DNA of 64,000 nucleotides from Candidatus Sumerlaeaceae bacterium. GTDB taxonomy: Bacteria; Sumerlaeota; Sumerlaeia; Sumerlaeales; Sumerlaeaceae. The notes below the pieces were generated by a model. It was not told where the DNA came from. It did no database searches and was given only the letters and a program-made list of their open reading frames with translations. How positions within the stretch are numbered: the stretch's first letter is position 1; every line of letters starts with the position of its first letter. The stretch is from assembly GCA_019695055.1 (NCBI GenBank), contig JAIBAT010000116.1:1-64000 (forward strand), written 5' to 3'. The position numbers and the translations under genes are program-made. This document shows, one piece after another, positions 50,255 to 63,060 of the stretch.

Positions 50255-51871
50255 ATGAAAATCGAAGACCAAAGCTGCGTCGAAATGGCGGGAACGGGGG
50301 AGAAGCAGGGACCCGAGGATGGTGAGCTTGTGCGTGCCGCGCGTGCCGGGGATATGGGGGCGTTTGAGGCACTGGTGGAGCGATACTTCGGGATGGTATT
50401 TGCCTTGTCGCTTGCGCGCATGGGGACGTATGAGGCGGCGGAAGACCTGACGCAGGAGGTGTTCCTGCGGATTTACCTGAATCTTGGAAAGCTGGATCAC
50501 CCGGAGTACTTTGCGACGTGGCTGACGCGGGTGACACGGAATCTTGCGACTGACTGGCTGCGCCGGGGTGCACGGGCCACGCGGCTGGTTCCGATGGTGG
50601 CGCTGGAGGAATCGGAAATGCAAATCCCTGATACCCGCGAGACGGGGCCGGACGGCAGGGCGGTGGAGCGCGAGCAAAGGGAGCTGGTGCAGCGCGAGCT
50701 GGCGCGTCTGCCTGTGGAAGTACGCGAGATGTTACTGCTGCATTATGTTGAGGATTTCAGCATGGAGGAAATCGGGCGGCGACTGGAGAAGCATCCAACA
50801 ACGGTTGGGCGCCAGATGAAGAAGGCCGTATCGGCGCTGCGTGGTTCGCTTGGACCGATCATGGGGGAGGCGCGTTTTGCCCTGCGTGCGCCGAAATCGG
50901 TGGCTGCCCGTTCGGTGGCGGTTATTGCCGCGGCGGCGGCCATGTCCGCGGCTTCCAAGGCAGCGCTGGCGGCAGCGGGAGGGACGTTATCGGTTTCCTC
51001 GGTGTCGGGGGGCAAGGCCGGGGCGTTTGCGGCAGTCACTGGATTCATGGGTCTAACCAAACAACTAATGGCGGCTGCGGCCGTGGGAGGACAAGCAATG
51101 GGAATGGCAAAAGGAGTCGTCGCTGCTGTGGCGGCTGTAGCTGTGCTGGGCGGTGGAGTGGCCTACTATCAATCGGAACATGCTGGATCGGGGGGAAATG
51201 GTGGTTCATCAATGGCTGGTGGCAAGTTGTCGGTATCCGCTCCACCTGCGTTCTTTAAGTCGGGTGGCGCCATTGAGGGGAACTGGATAGGAAACCTCGA
51301 TGCCGGCAAGCAGGGTGTTCTGCGGATTGTGTTCCGGATCCAGCGGGAACAGGACAAGAGTTTCTCCGCGAGCATGGACAGCCCTGATCAGGGAATTTCC
51401 GGATTGCCGGTCACGGAATTCAGAATTGACGGGGACGCCGTTTCCTTTGGCGTCAGCGCAGTGAAGGGTAGTTACGAAGGAAAGCGCACGGGGGATTCCG
51501 AGATTTCCGGGACTTGGAAACAACCGGGATTTGAGCGGGCCATGAAACTGATACGGACAATGGAGGTGCCCGCTGTAAAAACGCCGACACCGAGGACCGA
51601 GATCACGGTGGACCCGTCGACGTTTGACCAGTACGTGGGGCAGTACGCCATCACCCCGAAGTTTTCGATTACGATTACCCGGGAAGGTGATGGCCTATAC
51701 GCGCAGGCGACCGGGCAGCAACGGATGCAGATCTTCCCTGAGGCGGAGAACAAGTTCTTCTGGAAGGTTGTGGACGCACAGCTTACGTTCGAGAAGGAAC
51801 CTGGCGGGGGAGTGAACAAGGTTGTGCTGCACCAGAACAACATGGATCTTACGGGTACGCGTATTAAGTAG
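50255..51871 (+). CDS. ECF sigma factor fused to a membrane anchor and outer domain
   Basis: Fusion protein of 538 aa. Sigma region 2 is at about 30-100 (GAFEALVERYFGMVFALSLA, YEAAEDLTQEVFLRIYLNL) and region 4 at about 140-200 (LPVEVREMLLLHYVEDFSME, EEIGRRLEKHPTTVGRQMKK). An Ala-rich linker leads to a membrane helix (about 287-305). The outer part has a lipocalin-like stretch at about 340-435 (GVLRIVFRIQREQDKSFSAS, MDSPDQGISGLPVTEFRIDG) and a DUF3471-like domain at about 445-538 (FDQYVGQYAITPKFSITITR). Both are usually found next to periplasmic beta-lactamase-like hydrolases. A sigma factor tethered to the membrane with its own sensor is the likely reading. Start ATG 50255; no anti-sigma gene follows. 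Confidence 0.9.
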   Translation: MKIEDQSCVEMAGTGEKQGPEDGELVRAARAGDMGAFEALVERYFGMVFALSLARMGTYEAAEDLTQEVFLRIYLNLGKLDHPEYFATWLTRVTRNLATDWLRRGARATRLVPMVALEESEMQIPDTRETGPDGRAVEREQRELVQRELARLPVEVREMLLLHYVEDFSMEEIGRRLEKHPTTVGRQMKKAVSALRGSLGPIMGEARFALRAPKSVAARSVAVIAAAAAMSAASKAALAAAGGTLSVSSVSGGKAGAFAAVTGFMGLTKQLMAAAAVGGQAMGMAKGVVAAVAAVAVLGGGVAYYQSEHAGSGGNGGSSMAGGKLSVSAPPAFFKSGGAIEGNWIGNLDAGKQGVLRIVFRIQREQDKSFSASMDSPDQGISGLPVTEFRIDGDAVSFGVSAVKGSYEGKRTGDSEISGTWKQPGFERAMKLIRTMEVPAVKTPTPRTEITVDPSTFDQYVGQYAITPKFSITITREGDGLYAQATGQQRMQIFPEAENKFFWKVVDAQLTFEKEPGGGVNKVVLHQNNMDLTGTRIK

Positions 51872-52499: not shown

Positions 52500-52967
52500 T
52501 CAGGAAACGGTGGCCAGTTCAGCAAGGCACTGCTTTATGACGTCATCTACAGCGTAAGAAACCACCTCGGAAAGTCCCACCCCGGGATCGAAATCGGCGC
52601 CTTCAATTCCGTAAACCACCAGCACGCGCGGCAGCGACCCCAGTGCACGCGTCAGCTCAATGGCCTCTGCCAGGCTGAAATCATGGGTGGAGTAGTGAAA
52701 GAACTTTGTCGGAACTGGCTCCTTGTGGGAGTCGATTCGATAAATGGTTCCGGGCGCGGCGCCGGAGCTGACTGCGTCAAACAGATAGACCGCGTTGTGC
52801 TCCGATAGCAACTCCACCAACTCGGCACCTTCGCCGCTGGCTTCCTGCACCTCAGCTTGCGGCACCAGTGGGCGAAGCTTGCGCACAATTTCCAAGCCCA
52901 CCCCATCGTCGCGTCGGAATTCGTTTCCGATCCCGACGATCAGCGGCATGCCGGATTCGTAATCCAC
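52500..52967 (-). CDS. [NiFe]-hydrogenase maturation protease (group 3b operon)
   Basis: Endopeptidase of 155 aa of the HycI/HoxW family, which cuts the C-terminal tail off the large subunit once nickel is in place. Conserved parts: IVGIGNEFRRDDGVGLEIVR, in which the Glu and Asp bind the nickel-site metal, and later LFDAVSSGAAPGTIY and STHDFSLAEAI with a metal-binding His. It begins at GTG 52967 directly after the hydA stop; Met7 (52949) is an alternative. It is the last gene of the leftward operon and presumably processes HydA, whose C-terminal motif reads DPCISCATH. Confidence 0.9.
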   Translation of the reverse strand: MDYESGMPLIVGIGNEFRRDDGVGLEIVRKLRPLVPQAEVQEASGEGAELVELLSEHNAVYLFDAVSSGAAPGTIYRIDSHKEPVPTKFFHYSTHDFSLAEAIELTRALGSLPRVLVVYGIEGADFDPGVGLSEVVSYAVDDVIKQCLAELATVS

Positions 52968-54278
52968 CTAATCCCGTTCCACGGTAAGTTTCAGGAAATG
53001 AGTGGCGCAGGAGATACATGGATCATAGTTGCGAATCGCCTGCTCACAGCGGAGGGACAGTTTCTCTGTGGGCAGGTCCAGATTTTCCGCCACGAAGTTC
53101 CTCAGGTCATTTTCGATGATCTTCTGGTTCTGGGAAGTCGGCGGAATGATGGTCGCGTCCAGAATCACGCCGTGGTTGTCCAGCCGGTAACGGTGATAAA
53201 GAATTCCGCGAGGCGCTTCGGTGCAACCGTACCCGACGGCGGTACGTGGACGGATTTCCACATGGGGTGCCGGTGGCATCTCGTAATTGGTGATGATGCG
53301 CAGGGCCTCTTCACAGGCCCACAGTGTTTCCACGCCCCTTACAATGATGCTCTTGAAGGGGTTGCGACAGGATTCGCCAAGCCCTGCCTCTTTGGCAGCT
53401 TGCTGTGCCATGGGGGACAGGCGGTTGAAGTTCAGGTTGTAGCGCGCAAGTGGCCCGACAAAGTAGGCGCCATGCCCCTTGATATACGAATGAAGGGCAT
53501 TGGAGTGCTCCACGTGCTCCTCTGCAAAGTGGGCGTCGTATTCTCGTGCCGGAATGTCGATCCCTCGACTCGACACGATCTGGCCTTCATTGAAAGGATA
53601 CTCGTCGGGGTGCCTTAGCGCCACGAATTCATAGTCCTGTTCAAAGTCCGGAAATGTCAGCCCGGCTGCCACCTTTATCAATTGAAGGGATGCGTCCTGA
53701 GCCCACTTGAGTTTCTCGACAAGGGGCTCCAATTCCGCTTTCGTTGGAACACGATAGAAGCCGCCGACCCTCACATTGATTGGGTGAATCTCGCGCCCGC
53801 CCAGCAGGTTTACGATGGAGTTGCCTGTCTTCTTGAGCTGAAGGGCCAGCTTCACCAAGTCCGGATGGTCCCTGGCCATTTGGATGGCATCTGGGTATCC
53901 GAGAAAATCCGGCGCGTTGAGCATGGCGATGTGGAGCACGTGACTCTCTATCCATTCGCCGCAATACAGTAGCCGGCGCAGCTCCCGCAGCTGGCCCTGA
54001 ACAAGGACGCCGAAGGCGTTCTCCATGGCGTGGCACGCGCTCATCTGGTAGGCCACCGGGCATATGCCGCAAATGCGCGCCGTCAGGTCGGGCGCCTCAC
54101 TGTAGCGGCGCCCCCTCAGGAAGGCTTCAAAGAAGCGTGGCGGCTCGAAGATTCGTAGCTTCACATCAGCCACCTTGCCGCTTTTCACACGGACGTACAT
54201 GGCCCCCTCGCCCTCCACACGAGCCAGGTAGTTGATTTTCAATATTTCCGACCGGCCGATTGGCTTTTTACTTTTCAT
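52968..54278 (-). CDS. hydA: [NiFe]-hydrogenase group 3b large subunit
   Basis: Catalytic subunit (436 aa) of a cytoplasmic bidirectional hydrogenase. The nickel-iron site is complete: the L1 motif [20 protein letters not shown] and the L2 motif [10 protein letters not shown] near the C-terminus. [20 protein letters not shown] is also typical of group 3b and related enzymes. ATG 54278 is preferred over GTG 54287; both overlap the end of hydD (54268). The C-terminus carries ten residues after the L2 histidine, the part removed by the protease encoded downstream. Order hydB-G-D-A matches the NADP-linked sulfhydrogenases of Pyrococcus and bacteria. Confidence 0.96.
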
Positions 54279-55050
54279 GGGCTTCACTCTGCTTTCGGAA
54301 CTGGTCCGCGTAGGCGTTAAAGGTGCGGTAGGCTCGCATCACGTCCTGTCGGTGAACCTTCAGCTTGCCCACCCACCACGCGCTTAGAGAATCGGGATTG
54401 GCCGATTCCATCGGCCCATAGCAGCCAAAGCACCCGCGGTTGTATGCCGGGCACAAGGCGTTGCAACCCGCGTGGGTTACCGGGCCCATGCAGGGAATTC
54501 CCTGTGAAACTGCAATGCAGGGTAGGCCGCGTTGCTTGCATTCAATGCAGACTGCATGGGGGGGAATATTAGGTTTGCGACCTGTCACGGTGGCACTGAT
54601 GATTTCCACCAACTGGTTCTTGTTTATGGGGCAGCCGTGCAATTCGTAGTCCACGAATACGTGGTCGTTAATGGGAGTCGATTTGCGCAGTGTCTGGATA
54701 TATTCAGGCGTTGCATAGACAATGGAGGTGTAGGCCTTCACATCCGCGAAATTGCGCAATGCCTGGATTCCCCCTGCAGTGGCGCAGGCTCCGATCGTTA
54801 TCAATAGTCCCGACACCCGACGCACCTGCTGGATCCTTTCGGCGTCGTGGGGAGTGGTAATGGAGCCCTCGACGAGCGAGATGTCATAGGGCCCCTTCCC
54901 CATGGCACTCGATGCCTCGGGGAAGTAGGCTATGTCCACGGCTCCCGCCACGGCCAGCAGTTCATCCTCACAATCCAGCAGGCTGAGCTGGCATCCGTCG
55001 CAGGAGGCAAATTTCCAGACGGCCACACGGGGTTTGTTGCCCTTTTTCAT
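54268..55050 (-). CDS. hydD: [NiFe]-hydrogenase group 3b small subunit
   Basis: Iron-sulfur subunit of 260 aa that carries electrons from the nickel site. The proximal cluster ligands are in [26 protein letters not shown] and [10 protein letters not shown]; further cysteines in [12 protein letters not shown] and [19 protein letters not shown] would bind two more [4Fe-4S] clusters, as in group 3b. ATG 55050 starts [20 protein letters not shown] one base after the hydG stop. The frame stays open upstream inside hydG, but that extension has no family match. Confidence 0.96.
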
Positions 55051-55051
55051 C

Positions 55052-55867
55052 TCAGATCTCTCGCTTTCCAAAGAGTTCTTCGATCTCGTCAAACTGAAAG
55101 ACTGGACCATCCTTGCACACAAAATGCGGCCCGTGCTGGCAATGCCCGCAGAATCCCATGCCGCACTTCATGTTGCGCTCCATGGACACATAAATGCGCG
55201 AAGGAGACACACCGCGACGGCGCAACTCCTGGACGGTGAAGCGCATCATGACTTCGGGACCACAGACCAGGGCCATGGCGCCTGTGGGGTCAAAAGGCGC
55301 CTTTGGGATCAGGGACGTTACCAGGCCCACATTTCCACGCCATGAACCTACGGCGCGGTCCACCGTGACATGGATCTCGAGATCAAACTGGGAGCGCCAG
55401 TGCTTGAGTTCGTCCAGATAAAGTATGTCGTCAGGGCTGCGTGTCCCGTAAAGGAGCACAATTCTCCCGTAATGATTGCGGCGTGACAGTAGCTCATAGA
55501 GGGCTGGCCGCAATGGGGCCAAGCCGATGCCACCGGCCACGATGATTACGTCGCCATTTCCGGCATGCTCCACGGGCCAGTGGGATCCAAACGGTCCGCG
55601 AACACCAAGCACATCCCCACGCTTAAGTTTTCGCATGGCTTTTGTTACCGTGCCAACTTCACGGGTCGTGTGGGTCAATGGCATTTTTCGGCCTGGGCCA
55701 CTGCTGATGGAGATGGGCACTTCGCCGACTCCGAACACGTAAAGCATGTTGAACTGACCGGGCTCAAACGACATGGGGGGCTGGCCGTCCTGGCCTTCCA
55801 GTTCCAGCGTGAAGGTGTCGTGGGTTTCCTGGCGAACCAGGCTGACCTTGTAGAAATCAGGGATCAT
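55052..55867 (-). CDS. hydG: Hydrogenase NAD(P)H/FAD-binding subunit
   Basis: Diaphorase-type subunit of 271 aa that passes electrons to NADP+ (or polysulfide). It has a ferredoxin-NADP-reductase fold: a flavin-binding part ([35 protein letters not shown]), the nucleotide-binding [30 protein letters not shown], and a C-terminal [2Fe-2S] motif [17 protein letters not shown]. It begins at ATG 55867, 20 bases after the cyclic-nucleotide-binding gene, and ends one base before hydD. Confidence 0.95.
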
Positions 55868-55887: not shown

Positions 55888-56346
55888 CTATGGCGACTTG
55901 AAGATGTCGAGAAGGCGGATGCGTGTGGATTGGAGCCGTTGGGCCATGACCACGATCACACGTTTAAGCAATTCGTACCCGAGAGCGGGGTTCTGCTCCA
56001 TCAGGTTGCGAATGGCTGTTGCATCAAAGGCAATCGCCCGCGTGGGTTCCAGGGCCCTGGCGTCAAAGGATTTGCGAAACGGTGGCACCGCCCAGGACCA
56101 GCCCAGCAGGTCGCCGCTTTCCAGGGTTTCAATGACCATTGGGCCGCGGGACGGCGTGTGCACCTCCAAGGCCACGCGACCCTGCTCGATGAGGTAGAAT
56201 TCCGCCGACTCGGCACCCTCCCGGTAGATCACTGCACCCTCCTCCATCCTGACCGGTTTCGCGTGCGCTGCCATCGCCTTGATCAATGCCGGATCCGCCC
56301 CGGCAAGGAAGGGATGGTTCTTCAGCCCTGTTTCCTCATGTTTCAT
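55888..56346 (-). CDS. cNMP-binding (CAP_ED) single-domain protein in hydrogenase operon
   Basis: A 152-aa protein consisting of one cyclic-nucleotide-binding domain and nothing else: no helix-turn-helix as in CRP/FNR and no enzyme domain. The beta-barrel is visible in [20 protein letters not shown] and [20 protein letters not shown]; the phosphate-binding cassette region is altered ([20 protein letters not shown]), lacking the usual GE(I/L)A...R(A/S)A form, so cAMP binding is doubtful. ATG 56346 lies one base after the hydB stop and uses GGAGGAGG within hydB. Its place between hydB and hydG suggests a partner or sensor for the enzyme rather than a DNA-binding regulator. Confidence 0.93.
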
Positions 56347-58257: not shown

Positions 58258-58770
58258 ATGAGTGCTAACCTTAAGACCAAGCCCGCCTTGCCTTCGGCGG
58301 ACAAGAGATGGAAAATCGTCGACGCCACCATGCGGCGCCACGGTTACAGGTCCGATTCGCTGATCGAAGTGCTTCACACCGTGCAAGAGGCGTTCGGCTA
58401 CCTCGACGAGGTGGCCATGAAATTCGTGGCCGGTTCGCTTCGTATTCCGCCAAGCAAGGTTTACGGTGTGGCGTCGTTTTATCAGTTTTTCACACTGCGA
58501 CCGCCTGGTCGGCGCACTTGTGTGGTGTGCATGGGGACGGCCTGCTACATAAAGGGGGCGGCCAACCTGCTGGCGGCCGTGGCGGAGCACTACAACGTGA
58601 AGCCGGGAGAAACCACGGCGGATGGCGAACTCTCGCTCATCACAGCCCGGTGTTTCGGGTCATGCGGTCTTGCACCCGCTGCGGTCATTGACGGCAACGT
58701 TGCCGGAAAGCTTAATGTTGCCGACATGTTGGAACGCATCAAGGAGGGCGCGCAAAATGACGCTGCTTGA
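58258..58770 (+). CDS. hoxE: NAD-linked [NiFe]-hydrogenase subunit HoxE
   Basis: NuoE-like thioredoxin-fold [2Fe-2S] protein of 170 aa, first gene of the rightward operon. ATG 58258 starts [15 protein letters not shown]; the frame opens earlier but that part lies in the regulatory gap. The cluster ligands are in [14 protein letters not shown] and [11 protein letters not shown]. HoxE is the accessory subunit that distinguishes pentameric HoxEFUYH from tetrameric HoxFUYH; it may connect to a further electron acceptor. Its stop overlaps the hoxF start region by 14 bases. Confidence 0.95.
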
Positions 58771-60394
58771 GGATCTCCAACATATCACGGAGGAAGAAGA
58801 AGAGAAGGATTCCAAGTTCAAGTATCATATTAACATTTGTGTCGCTGCGGGCTGCCTTTCCTCTCAGAGCGATGTGATCAAGAAAACCCTTCAAGACGAG
58901 GTCAACAAGTGCGGATTGGCCGAGGTATGCAAAGTCAAAGGGGTTGGGTGTATGGGCCCCTGCAGTGGCGGACCGGTTGTGGCCCTGGCGGAGTCGGGTG
59001 TGCTTTACGAGCATGTTAAGGTGGAGGATTGCGCCGAAATCGTCAAGAGCCTTGAAGGAAAACCCGTGGAGCGCCTGGTGCAATCCACTGACACGCCGTT
59101 CTTCAAACGCCAGGTTAAGATTGTCTTGGAAAACTGCGGCAAGATTGACCCCGAATCCATTACCGATTACATTGCGGCTGGTGGTTATCGGGCCCTCACC
59201 CACGCGCTGGCGGAAATGACTCCCGTGGAAGTGGTAGAGGAAGTGAAAAAGAGCGGGCTCAGGGGTCGTGGGGGTGCCGGGTATCCAACGGGTTTAAAGT
59301 GGAGCACCGTGGCGAAGGCCCAAAGCAGCGGTCGCAAGTTTGTCGTTTGCAACGCGGACGAGGGAGATCCGGGGGCTTTTATGGATCGCAGTGTCCTTGA
59401 AAGCGATCCCCACCGCGTTTTGGAGGGAATGGCCATCGCCGGATACGCGGTCGCGGCGGACATGGGCTATGTATACGTACGCGCCGAGTACCCGCTGGCC
59501 ATCAAGCGCCTAAAGACCGCAATTAAGCAGGCCGAGCAGCAGGGCGTTCTTGGCAATGACATTTGCGGCACCAACTTCAGCTTCCATGTCGAGATTCGTC
59601 TCGGAGCCGGGGCGTTTGTCTGTGGAGAGGAAACAGCCCTCCTGGCATCCATCGAAGGTAATCGAGGCCAACCAAGGCCGCGACCGCCGTTCCCGGCCAT
59701 CAAAGGCTTGTGGGACCGACCCACACTGATCAACAACGTGGAAACATTTGGTAATATTGCCCCGATCATTCGAAACGGCGGCGAGTGGTTCGCCGGCATT
59801 GGCACCGAGAAGAGCAAGGGCACCAAAGTCTTTGCTCTGGCAGGCAAGGTGCAGAACACCGGCCTTATCGAGGTCCCGATGGGAGTTACTCTTAGGGAAA
59901 TCGTATTCGACATCGGTGGCGGTATCCCCGACGGACGTTCCTACAAGGCAGTGCAGACCGGCGGACCCTCCGGCGGATGCATACCGGCGGAACACCTCGA
60001 CTTGCCTGTGGACTACGAGTCCCTTGCCCGTGTCGGGTCCATTATGGGGTCGGGCGGCATGATCGTCATGGACGACACGTCCAACATGGTGGACGTGGCC
60101 AAGTTCTTCATGGAATTCTGCATGACCGAATCCTGTGGCAAGTGCGTACCGTGCCGTGTCGGTACCGCACAAATGTACGACTTGCTTACAAAGATGACGG
60201 AAAAGCGCGCAACTCCCAGAGACCTCGCCCTGCTCGAGGAGTTGTGCGAGGTTGTCAAGAACACCAGCCTTTGCGGGCTGGGCCAGACGGCTCCCAATCC
60301 CGTGCTAAGCACCCTGGAATATTTCCGGCATGAATACTACGAGGCGATCACGGGCGGAATTCCGGCCGGACCCGCGGTGGAGGCTGTGTCATGA
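58757..60394 (+). CDS. hoxF: NAD-linked hydrogenase diaphorase subunit HoxF
   Basis: NuoF-like subunit of 545 aa that binds FMN and NAD(H). A thioredoxin-like [2Fe-2S] domain is fused at the N-terminus ([23 protein letters not shown]). FMN/NAD motifs are [27 protein letters not shown] and [19 protein letters not shown], and the N3 cluster ligands are [13 protein letters not shown] plus a later Cys (TSLCGLGQT). ATG 58757 follows AAGGAGG at 58741-58747. The stop TGA (60392-60394) overlaps the hoxU ATG as ATGA. Confidence 0.97.
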
Positions 60395-61098
60395 GCGTCA
60401 AAACACTCGTCATCGACGGCAAGGACGTCAGTGGTAACGACAACCAAACAGTCATGGAGGTTGCACGGGAGAATGGGATCAGGATCCCAGCCCTGTGCCA
60501 CTTGGATGGGCTGACACCGGTGGGCGCCTGCCGTATGTGTGTCATCGAGGTCAAGGGGCTCAACAAGCTTCTGCCGGCCTGCGTAACGCGAATCGAAGAG
60601 GGTATGGAAGTATCGACGAACTCCGATCGTCTGCAGCGTTACCGTCGTACCATTCTCGAACTGCTCTTCAGCGAGCGAAATCATATCTGCAGCGTGTGCG
60701 TTTCAAATGGCCATTGCGACCTGCAGGGCCTGGCCGCGCGTCATGGCGTCACCCACGTTAGCGTGCCCTACCGCTATCCGAGCTGCCCGGTGGATGCCAC
60801 CCATTCGAGGTTCATACTTGACCACAATCGCTGCATACTTTGTACGCGCTGTGTTCGCGTATGCGACGAGGTCGAGGGGGCTCACACTTGGGATGTAATG
60901 GGTCGCGGAATTGAGGCACGTGTCATTACTGATTTAAATCAGCAGTGGGGAACATCGGGGTCCTGCACTAGTTGCAGCAAGTGCGTCCACGTCTGCCCGA
61001 CAGGTGCGCTCTCCGAAAAGGGCAAGTCGGTGGCCGAGATGGCCAAGCATCGCGAGTTTTTGCCATACCTGAAGCAGATGCGGGAGGATCATAGATGA
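60391..61098 (+). CDS. hoxU: NAD-linked hydrogenase iron-sulfur subunit HoxU
   Basis: NuoG-N-terminus-like subunit of 235 aa linking diaphorase and hydrogenase halves. Cluster motifs appear in order: [2Fe-2S] ligands in [17 protein letters not shown], then [18 protein letters not shown], and two [4Fe-4S] motifs, [15 protein letters not shown] and [18 protein letters not shown] 60391 overlaps the hoxF stop, and its own TGA (61096-61098) overlaps the hoxY ATG, so translation is coupled through the operon. Confidence 0.97.
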
Positions 61099-61625
61099 AA
61101 GCGCGAGTTGCCACTGTCTGGCTGGACGGATGTTCTGGATGTCACATGTCCTTCCTCGACATGGACGAACGTCTCGTCGAATTGGCAGAAAAGGCTGACA
61201 TCGTATACGGCCCCCTGGCTGACACCAAGGAGTTCCCCGAGAACGTGGACGTCACCCTTGTGGAAGGTGCCGTCAGTAGCGAGGAGGATTTGCACAAGAT
61301 TCTTATCATCCGAAAGAACTCTCGAATTGTTGTCTCTCTGGGCGACTGCGCGGTCACCTCAAACGTTCCCTCCATGCGCAATTCGGTGGGAACCGACGCA
61401 ATTCTGTTTCGCGCCTATCGAGAAAACGCCACCCACGCCCTACAGATTCCCGACAAGGTTATCCCCAAGCTGTTGCCGCGCGCCGTGCCGGTGCACGAGG
61501 TGGTCAAGGTAGACGTCTTCATTCCCGGTTGCCCCCCGTCGGCCGACACGATTTTCGAGGCCGTCATGGGGTTGTTGACCGGGCAAAAAGCAGACCTCGC
61601 CTCCCTCACAAGATTCGGAGCATAG
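61095..61625 (+). CDS. hoxY: NAD-linked hydrogenase small subunit HoxY
   Basis: Short-type small subunit of 176 aa. Only the proximal [4Fe-4S] ligands are present: [24 protein letters not shown] and IPGCPPSAD. The lack of the medial and distal cluster domain is normal for group 3d and separates it from HydD of the neighbouring operon. ATG 61095 overlaps the hoxU stop; hoxH begins 10 bases after the end. Confidence 0.97.
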
Positions 61626-61635
61626 GAGAGTCCCA

Positions 61636-63060
61636 ATGTCTCAGACCATCACCATTGATCCCGTCAGCCGCATCGAGGGCCACGCGAAAATCACGATCGA
61701 ACTCGACGAGCAGAAGCAGGTTCGGGATGCGCACTTCCACATCACCCAGTTCCGGGGATTTGAGAAATTCTGTGAAGGCCGTCCATTTACCGAAATGCCA
61801 TCACTCATGGCGCGCATTTGCGGGATCTGCCCGGTTAGTCACCTGGTGGCTTCGGCAAAAGCCTGCGATGCCATCATGGCGGTTCGTATCCCGGAAACCG
61901 CGGCCAAGCTCCGCCGCATTATGAATCTTGCCCAACACATTCAGTCCCATGCGCTTAGCTTCTTCCACCTCTCCTCGCCTGACCTTTTGCTGGGCATGGA
62001 TTCCGACCCGGCCACGCGAAACATCTTCGGGGTAATGCAGGCGCATCCTCATCTTGCCCTCGATGGCATCAAGCTGCGCAAGTTTGGCCAGCAGATCATC
62101 GAATGGCTTGGCGGCAAGCGCATTCATCCGGCATGGATCGTCCCGGGTGGTGTCAACGAACCTTTGACCGAGGAGCGCCGCGACCAAATTCTCGCCGAAA
62201 TTCCCGGAGCCATGCAGATCATTCTAAGAACTTTGGAATGGTTTAAGGAGGCGTCCGTCAAGTATACCGACGAGATTCGCCACTTCGCGAACTTCAACAC
62301 GATGTTCTTTGGACTGGTGGATGAAGGCGGCGGCCTTGAGATGTACGACGGCGTCATTCGCATCGTCGATGCCCAGGGCAATGTTGTGGCCGATCGTCTC
62401 GACCCGGCCAACTATCAGGATTTTATCGGCGAGGCCGTGGAGCCATATTCCTACCTCAAGTCGCCGTACTACAAAAACGTTGGCTATCCTGAGGGCATCT
62501 ATCGTGTCGGGCCACTGGCCCGGCTCAACATCGCCAGCCATATAGGGACGCCGCTTGCCCACAAGGAATGGGAAGAATTCCGCGGACCCAACAAGCGCGT
62601 CATACTTAGCTCTTTCCATTATCACCTTGCCCGGCTCATCGAGATTCTGTATGGTATTGAAATGATCGAGAAGCTGCTCAATGAGCCTGACATTCTCAGT
62701 GACCGCGTCCGTGCCGTCGCCGGCCCCAACAGCTTGGAGGGAATCGGTGTTTCCGAAGCGCCGCGAGGAACGTTGATGCACCACTATCGCATCGACAAGC
62801 ACGGTTTGATCACGTGGGCCAACCTAATCATTGCGACCGGCCACAACAACCTGGCCATGAACAAGGGTGTCCTCCAGGTGGCGAAGGCCTACCTGAAGGG
62901 TACGCAACCCACCGAGGGAATGTTGAATCGCGTCGAGGCGGTCATTCGCTGCTACGATCCCTGCCTGAGTTGCTCGACTCACGCTGTGGGTCACATGCCG
63001 CTTGTCCTTCAGGTTCGTTCGCACGATGGTGAGATCCTTGGAGAGACCGCAAGAAAATGA
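61636..63060 (+). CDS. hoxH: NAD-linked [NiFe]-hydrogenase large subunit HoxH
   Basis: Catalytic subunit of 474 aa of the group 3d enzyme, cytoplasmic. The nickel site is complete: L1 [19 protein letters not shown] and L2 [35 protein letters not shown] lies between. The residues after the L2 histidine ([19 protein letters not shown] and on) are the tail to be cut by HoxW. ATG 61636 follows AGGAGAG. Its TGA overlaps hoxW. H2 oxidation or proton reduction here is linked to NAD(H) through HoxF. Confidence 0.97.

What the first reader, a model, noticed from the sequence alone, without database searches (positions are those of the whole stretch)
55888..56346. Single-domain cyclic-nucleotide-binding-fold protein embedded in the 3b operon
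The gene sits between hydB and hydG, one base after hydB, and encodes only a CAP_ED domain with no DNA-binding part. The ligand cassette is altered ([18 protein letters not shown]). A CAP-fold protein placed among structural genes suggests an allosteric or structural partner that ties enzyme activity to a small molecule or redox signal. I recall similar proteins annotated beside other hydrogenases, but their function is not established to my knowledge.
Basis: partly seen in the sequence, partly recalled or inferred. Interest (0 to 1): 0.65.

Follow-up and report, generated by a model that had tools for sequence, protein, structure and literature searches.

The report
CAP-fold accessory protein of 3b hydrogenase
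A small protein shaped like a cyclic-nucleotide sensor, but lacking the residues that grip cAMP and any DNA-binding part, is encoded inside the operon of a hydrogen-cycling enzyme here and in many other bacterial phyla, so it is probably a regulatory or structural subunit of that enzyme whose signal is still unknown.

Summary
The gene is real but lies on the minus strand (56346 to 55888, 152 aa), one base after hydB, in hydB-CAP-hydG-hydD-hydA-protease. It is a single CAP_ED domain (Pfam E 7e-14; AlphaFold pLDDT 90, nearest folds GlxR/Crp and 3mdp) without a DNA-binding domain. CRP's cassette residues Glu72 and Arg82 are replaced in a family-wide GWSW motif. In Mycobacterium all 11 carriers are among the 49 hydB-positive genomes of 118. 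In the window's class all seven close-type hydB genes have it; the distant-type ones do not. A weaker-scoring actinobacterial branch lives apart from hydrogenases. The best analogue is HoxI of the Cupriavidus soluble hydrogenase, reported as its NADPH-activation subunit; a 2025 paper gave that name to a 3b-cluster gene. By profile score and tree HoxI is no closer than ordinary Crp proteins: similar in kind, not an orthologue. Most members keep three cysteines; the window copy has none. A HydB-CAP-HydG fold was inconclusive (pTM 0.68). Contact, ligand and effect are untested.

The parts
55888..56346 (-). CAP_ED (cNMP-binding fold) single-domain protein, 152 aa
56353..56361 (-). Shine-Dalgarno-like GGGAGGAGG ahead of the CAP ATG, inside the end of hydB
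   Evidence: sequence
56053..56106 (-). altered phosphate-binding cassette [18 protein letters not shown] (residues 81-98); CRP Glu72 aligns with Trp83 and CRP Arg82 with Lys92
55921..55926 (-). Thr141-Arg142, near-invariant in the family, aligned with CRP Thr127-Ser128 of the C-helix
55900..55989 (-). C-terminal helix (residues 120-149), equivalent to the CRP dimerisation helix
56348..57529 (-). hydB, 4Fe-4S beta subunit of the 3b hydrogenase
55052..55867 (-). hydG, FAD/NAD(P)-binding gamma subunit
54268..55050 (-). hydD, small (delta) subunit
52968..54287 (-). hydA, [NiFe] large (alpha) subunit with RICGICP and DPCISC motifs
52500..52967 (-). hydrogenase maturation protease

Best explanation
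The gene encodes a dedicated accessory subunit or regulator of a bacterial clade of group-3b [NiFe]-hydrogenases. Shown: the fold, the absence of a DNA-binding domain, the altered ligand cassette, the operon position, and conserved adjacency to or co-occurrence with 3b hydB in the close family. Inferred: the protein dimerises through its long C-helix, docks on the HydB-HydG (Fe-S/flavin) electron-input module, and tunes enzyme activity or stability in response to a small molecule that is not bound as CRP binds cAMP (possibly a nicotinamide nucleotide, by analogy with HoxI). In most members a conserved cysteine triad could add redox or metal sensitivity; the window copy has lost it, so any such role is not essential here. 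It works like HoxI but is not its orthologue.
For: Operon: 64 of the 80 best genome-collection relatives have hydB directly upstream and hydG directly downstream; two more have hydB upstream with the contig ending before hydG, and one has CAP directly before hydB. All 13 orphan genomes among these 80 have a 3b hydB elsewhere. Mycobacterium: 11/11 carriers are hydB-positive, against 49/118 overall, Fisher p 3e-5. Actinomycetes: 18 of 28 hydB genomes carry CAP, against 19 of 219 without hydB, p 1e-10, 15 of the 18 adjacent. Own class: 7/7 close-type hydB (51% identity or more) have CAP in the operon; the distant-type homologues of six genomes (30-37%) have none beside them, and only G013, which also has a close-type operon, has a CAP gene at all. 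Fold. Cassette. HoxI precedent: dimer bound to the diaphorase, NADPH-activation site (PMC3702609, PMC3189943).
Against: No physical contact is shown; the linked three-protein AlphaFold run gave pTM 0.68 and no PAE. 38 of 49 hydB-positive mycobacteria and 10 of 28 hydB-positive actinomycete genomes lack a match at the cut-offs used, so the enzyme can do without it. A weaker-scoring actinobacterial branch has no detected 3b hydB in its genomes and sits near stress or nitrate-reductase genes. The Fisher values ignore phylogeny. The 80 loci were found with a GWSW pattern and ranked by similarity to the window's alignment, so they are a biased sample of 378.
Confidence: 0.62

Rival explanations
1. 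A ligand-free structural or assembly subunit: the CAP fold is a scaffold that stabilises the HydB-HydG module, and the cassette no longer binds anything.
For: Cassette Glu and Arg lost; strong Shine-Dalgarno suggests substantial synthesis; tight operon position.
Against: The cassette is not decayed but conserved in a new form: G82, W83, S84, W85 and P89 are invariant in the window protein and its seven class relatives, which were found without a motif search, and Thr141-Arg142 on the ligand side of the C-helix are near-invariant. That points to a pocket or an interface under selection, but does not tell which.
Confidence: 0.18
2. A free-standing sensor protein (redox, hypoxia or nucleotide) that acts on other targets and is only co-transcribed with the hydrogenase.
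For: An actinobacterial branch lies beside universal-stress, CBS-domain and narGHJI genes or in genomes without detected 3b hydB; G011, an 81% complete genome, has the gene but no detected 3b hydB or hydA.
Against: The position between hydB and hydG is conserved over many phyla, and the orphan genes of Mycobacterium still track hydB.
Confidence: 0.11
3. A true orthologue of HoxI that provides an NADPH-activation site, as a 2025 paper's naming implies for a 3b cluster.
For: Same fold, similar size and same kind of position beside hydrogenase genes; 32% identity over 116 residues, E 1e-7; naming in PMC12319191.
Against: HoxI scores 39.5 bits with the family profile, below GlxR (54.8) and 3mdp (73.4), while full-length members score about 108 or more; it falls outside the grouping of GWSW family, 3mdp and GlxR in the tree; its cassette is GELG, not GWSW.
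Confidence: 0.05
4. A canonical cAMP or cGMP sensor subunit.
For: Pfam cNMP_binding and CAP fold.
Against: CRP Glu72 is replaced by Trp, and Arg82 by Lys or other residues, across the family.
Confidence: 0.04

Closest known systems
HoxI of the Cupriavidus necator soluble NAD-reducing [NiFe]-hydrogenase (group 3d), WP_011154015.1 on pHG1
   Same: Small single CAP_ED protein without DNA-binding domain, encoded in a cytosolic NAD(P)-linked [NiFe]-hydrogenase operon; reported as a dimer on the diaphorase and NADPH-activation site (PMC3702609).
   Different: HoxI is in a 3d hox operon after the protease gene; its cassette is GELGFIDQTPHS; it is not closer to the window protein than ordinary Crp proteins by profile or tree.
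CNBD gene of the 3b clusters of the methanotroph 'M. acidophilus' 29 (named HoxI, PMC12319191) and of Rhodococcus equi 103S (PMC13332983)
   Same: Cyclic-nucleotide-binding-domain gene in a group-3b hydrogenase cluster; probably the same family, though these sequences were not compared here.
   Different: Only annotation is given in the passages read; no function was tested there.
Gmet_1532 (PDB 3mdp), single-domain CNBD from Geobacter metallireducens
   Same: Closest solved single-domain structure: profile E 1.4e-19; TM 0.90 of the target, 24% identity; cassette GVSSLIKPYHYTSSARA resembles the family's.
   Different: Falls outside the GWSW family in the tree; its genome context was not examined.
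GlxR / mycobacterial Crp transcription factors (4byy, 3d0s)
   Same: CAP beta-roll and C-helix; best Foldseek matches (E 2.8e-14).
   Different: They carry a DNA-binding HTH domain and a GE...R cassette; the window protein has neither.

Membership tests
Pfam PF00027 cNMP_binding / CAP_ED fold | profile match above gathering score | tested here: met
   52 bits against 27.5
Pfam PF00027 cNMP_binding / CAP_ED fold | beta-roll with flanking helices | tested here: met
Crp/Fnr transcription factors | C-terminal helix-turn-helix DNA-binding domain | tested here: not met
   the protein ends after the C-helix
Canonical cAMP/cGMP-binding CNBD | cassette Glu (CRP E72) and Arg (CRP R82) | tested here: not met
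   Trp83 and Lys92 in the window protein
HoxI | orthology with C. necator HoxI | tested here: not met
   39.5 bits with the family profile; outside the family in the tree; only one HoxI sequence was available
HoxI | gene in a hoxFUYH operon | tested here: not met
   lies in the 3b operon; no such gene within the divergent window hox cluster
HoxI | dimer bound to the diaphorase module | tested here: inconclusive
   linked fold gave pTM 0.68 without PAE; needs co-purification
HoxI | NADPH-dependent activation of the enzyme | not testable with these tools
   needs biochemistry
Group 3b [NiFe]-hydrogenase (host operon) | HydB/HydG/HydD/HydA subunits, with RICGICP and DPCxxC motifs in HydA | tested here: met
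   best NCBIfam models are the sulfhydrogenase subunits, though below their archaeal equivalog cut-offs
GWSW single-domain CAP_ED family delineated here | GWSW cassette and TR in the C-helix | tested here: met
GWSW single-domain CAP_ED family delineated here | Cys triad (C28, C111, C116), typical but not universal | tested here: not met
   79 of 89 compared members have all three; the window protein has none

The most novel reading that the evidence does not exclude
A family of CAP-fold hydrogenase subunits in which the cyclic-nucleotide cassette has been rebuilt around two tryptophans to sense a different ligand, with a cysteine triad as a redox or metal switch in most members, making group-3b hydrogenases of many bacterial phyla allosteric enzymes.
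Probability: 0.25. Interest if true: 0.72.

Novelty: new variant of a known kind. Interest (0 to 1): 0.47.

Why it matters
Group-3b hydrogenases are widespread cytosolic H2/NAD(P)H enzymes whose working direction and control in cells are unclear. A conserved extra protein of a known sensory fold, encoded between the two electron-input subunits and distinct from HoxI, gives a concrete handle on that control. It also warns against transferring the HoxI name and its NADPH role to the 3b genes without a test.

Tried and rejected
A first genome-collection scan with the single window protein found no relatives, because the peptides it used are divergent in the window copy; the scan with an eight-sequence alignment gave 378. 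A search of the whole phylum only re-sampled the class, as few genomes are held. A HoxI search in 398 genomes of the phylum of a Halieaceae genome gave only weak matches to other CNBD proteins, so no HoxI group could be built for the tree. The linked HydB-CAP-HydG fold used locus L069, where the three genes lie in one frame, reading stops as Gly; pTM 0.68 lies between what I would expect for no and for full mutual placement (a rough estimate of mine), and without PAE I draw no interface from it. A transcription-factor role was rejected for lack of an HTH. Two further literature searches found nothing more. Burgdorf 2005 is not held; its result is taken from papers that cite it.

Full report
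Observation. The ORF is at the stated coordinates but on the minus strand. It encodes 152 residues, [16 protein letters not shown]...[15 protein letters not shown]. The hydB stop codon and the CAP start codon are one base apart, and GGGAGGAGG lies six bases ahead of the ATG. Pfam gives cNMP_binding only. NCBIfam gives no family assignment: its matches to family-2B encapsulin, Pat and CRP are far below their cut-offs. The operon is hydB, CAP, hydG, hydD, hydA, protease, divergent from hoxEFUYH at 58258-63060.

Fold. AlphaFold2 with 74 family sequences gave mean pLDDT 90.2 and pTM 0.85. Foldseek against the PDB puts GlxR and mycobacterial Crp first by E-value (2.8e-14 and 4.8e-14); the single-domain protein 3mdp fits best over its length (TM 0.90 of the target, rmsd 1.6). 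The chain ends with the C-helix, so there is no DNA-binding domain.

Ligand site. Aligned with E. coli CRP, Glu72 is Trp83 and Arg82 is Lys92; Ser83 is kept in the window protein but varies in the family. CRP Thr127-Ser128, which contact the base of cAMP in CRP (own knowledge), align with near-invariant Thr141-Arg142. GWSW is present in all seven relatives found in the window's class without any motif search. In the genome-collection set it is partly guaranteed by the search pattern, so its invariance there is not independent evidence. One plasmid relative has GASW and some actinobacterial members vary. Canonical cAMP binding is therefore unlikely; another ligand, or none, is open.

Cysteines. 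C28, C111 and C116 (window numbering) are all present in 79 of 89 compared members; these positions were not part of the search pattern. The window protein is the only one of the 89 with none. Some further actinobacterial members, including one adjacent to hydB (L151), also contain no cysteine in the matched domain. A redox or metal role is speculation, and is not needed in the window copy.

Link with 3b hydrogenase. A genome-collection scan found 383 motif hits, 378 of them relatives; the best 80 were kept. In 64 the order is hydB-CAP-hydG, in two the contig ends before hydG, and in L087 the gene lies directly before hydB, making 67 adjacent to hydB. The median gap from hydB stop to CAP start is 5.5 nt over 66 loci. 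Of the 13 others, 11 are from Mycobacterium or Mycobacteriaceae, one is from a Terriglobales and one from a Streptosporangiaceae genome; all 13 genomes have a 3b hydB elsewhere. The Terriglobales genome also has a second CAP copy beside its hydB. Record titles among the 80 name Acidobacteria, Bacteroidetes, Ignavibacteria, Planctomycetes, Zixibacteria, KSB1, Chlorobiaceae, Actinobacteria and Proteobacteria, among others.

Reverse test. In the window's class seven genomes have hydB at 51% identity or more, and all seven have CAP in the operon. Six genomes have homologues at 30-37%, none with a CAP gene beside it; the only one of these six with a CAP gene at all is G013, which also holds a close-type operon. 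In 118 Mycobacterium genomes, 11 have CAP and 49 have hydB; all 11 are among the 49 (Fisher 3e-5). In 247 genomes of the same class as Mycobacterium, 37 have CAP and 28 hydB, 18 both, 15 of them adjacent (Fisher 1e-10). These tests treat genomes as independent, which they are not, so the p-values overstate the evidence; the breadth across phyla is the better argument.

Limits of the link. Nineteen of those 37 CAP-bearing genomes have no detected 3b hydB. Most of them hold lower-scoring copies, up to four per genome. Two annotated plasmid examples (Streptomyces) lie beside a universal stress protein and carbonic anhydrase, and beside a CBS-domain gene and narGHJI. In the tree this branch also contains some hydB-adjacent members, so it is not cleanly separate, and many supports are low. 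G011, 81% complete, has an orphan copy and no detected hydB or hydA.

Relation to HoxI. In C. necator the HoxI dimer is described as bound to the diaphorase and as the NADPH-activation site (PMC3702609, PMC3189943), while the four-subunit enzyme without HoxI is active and was made in better yield (PMC12281615). A 2025 paper names a CNBD gene of a 3b cluster HoxI and cites that work (PMC12319191); a 2026 paper lists a CNBD gene in the R. equi 3b cluster (PMC13332983). So the gene's presence in 3b clusters is published, but I found no functional test. HoxI scores 39.5 bits with the family profile, against 54.8 for GlxR and 73.4 for 3mdp (two builds of a profile from the same alignment). In a tree of 75 sequences rooted on E. 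coli CRP, the GWSW family joins 3mdp (support 0.94) and then GlxR (0.97), with HoxI outside. Only one HoxI sequence was available, so this needs a wider sample.

Physical contact. A linked HydB-CAP-HydG model from locus L069, with 22 rows in which HydB and CAP are paired, gave mean pLDDT 86.9 and pTM 0.68. The tool returns no PAE or coordinates, so contact can be neither claimed nor excluded.

Conclusion. The mechanism beyond that is inference.

Noticed in passing
58258-63060 (+): A second, divergent bidirectional hydrogenase cluster hoxEFUYH stands back to back with the 3b operon and has no CAP gene of its own. L063 has the 3b operon followed directly by hoxEFUYH on the same strand, and L035 has hoxE/hoxF downstream.
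   Followed up: partly
L137, L099: Single-domain GWSW CAP_ED proteins of Streptomyces lie beside narGHJI, CBS-domain, universal stress and carbonic anhydrase genes; actinomycete genomes with such copies can carry two to four and often have no detected 3b hydB.
   Followed up: partly
L087:5-430: A Streptosporangiaceae operon has the order CAP-hydB-hydG instead of hydB-CAP-hydG.
   Followed up: no
L101 and L076 (same genome, G048): A Terriglobales genome has two copies: one beside hydB and one orphan.
   Followed up: no
L123 and L135 (genome G013): One genome of the class carries both a close-type hydB with CAP and a distant hydB-like gene without it.
   Followed up: no
50255-51871 (+): ORF of 538 aa that starts like an ECF sigma factor and continues with a long C-terminal part, Ala-rich and possibly membrane-spanning.
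   Followed up: no
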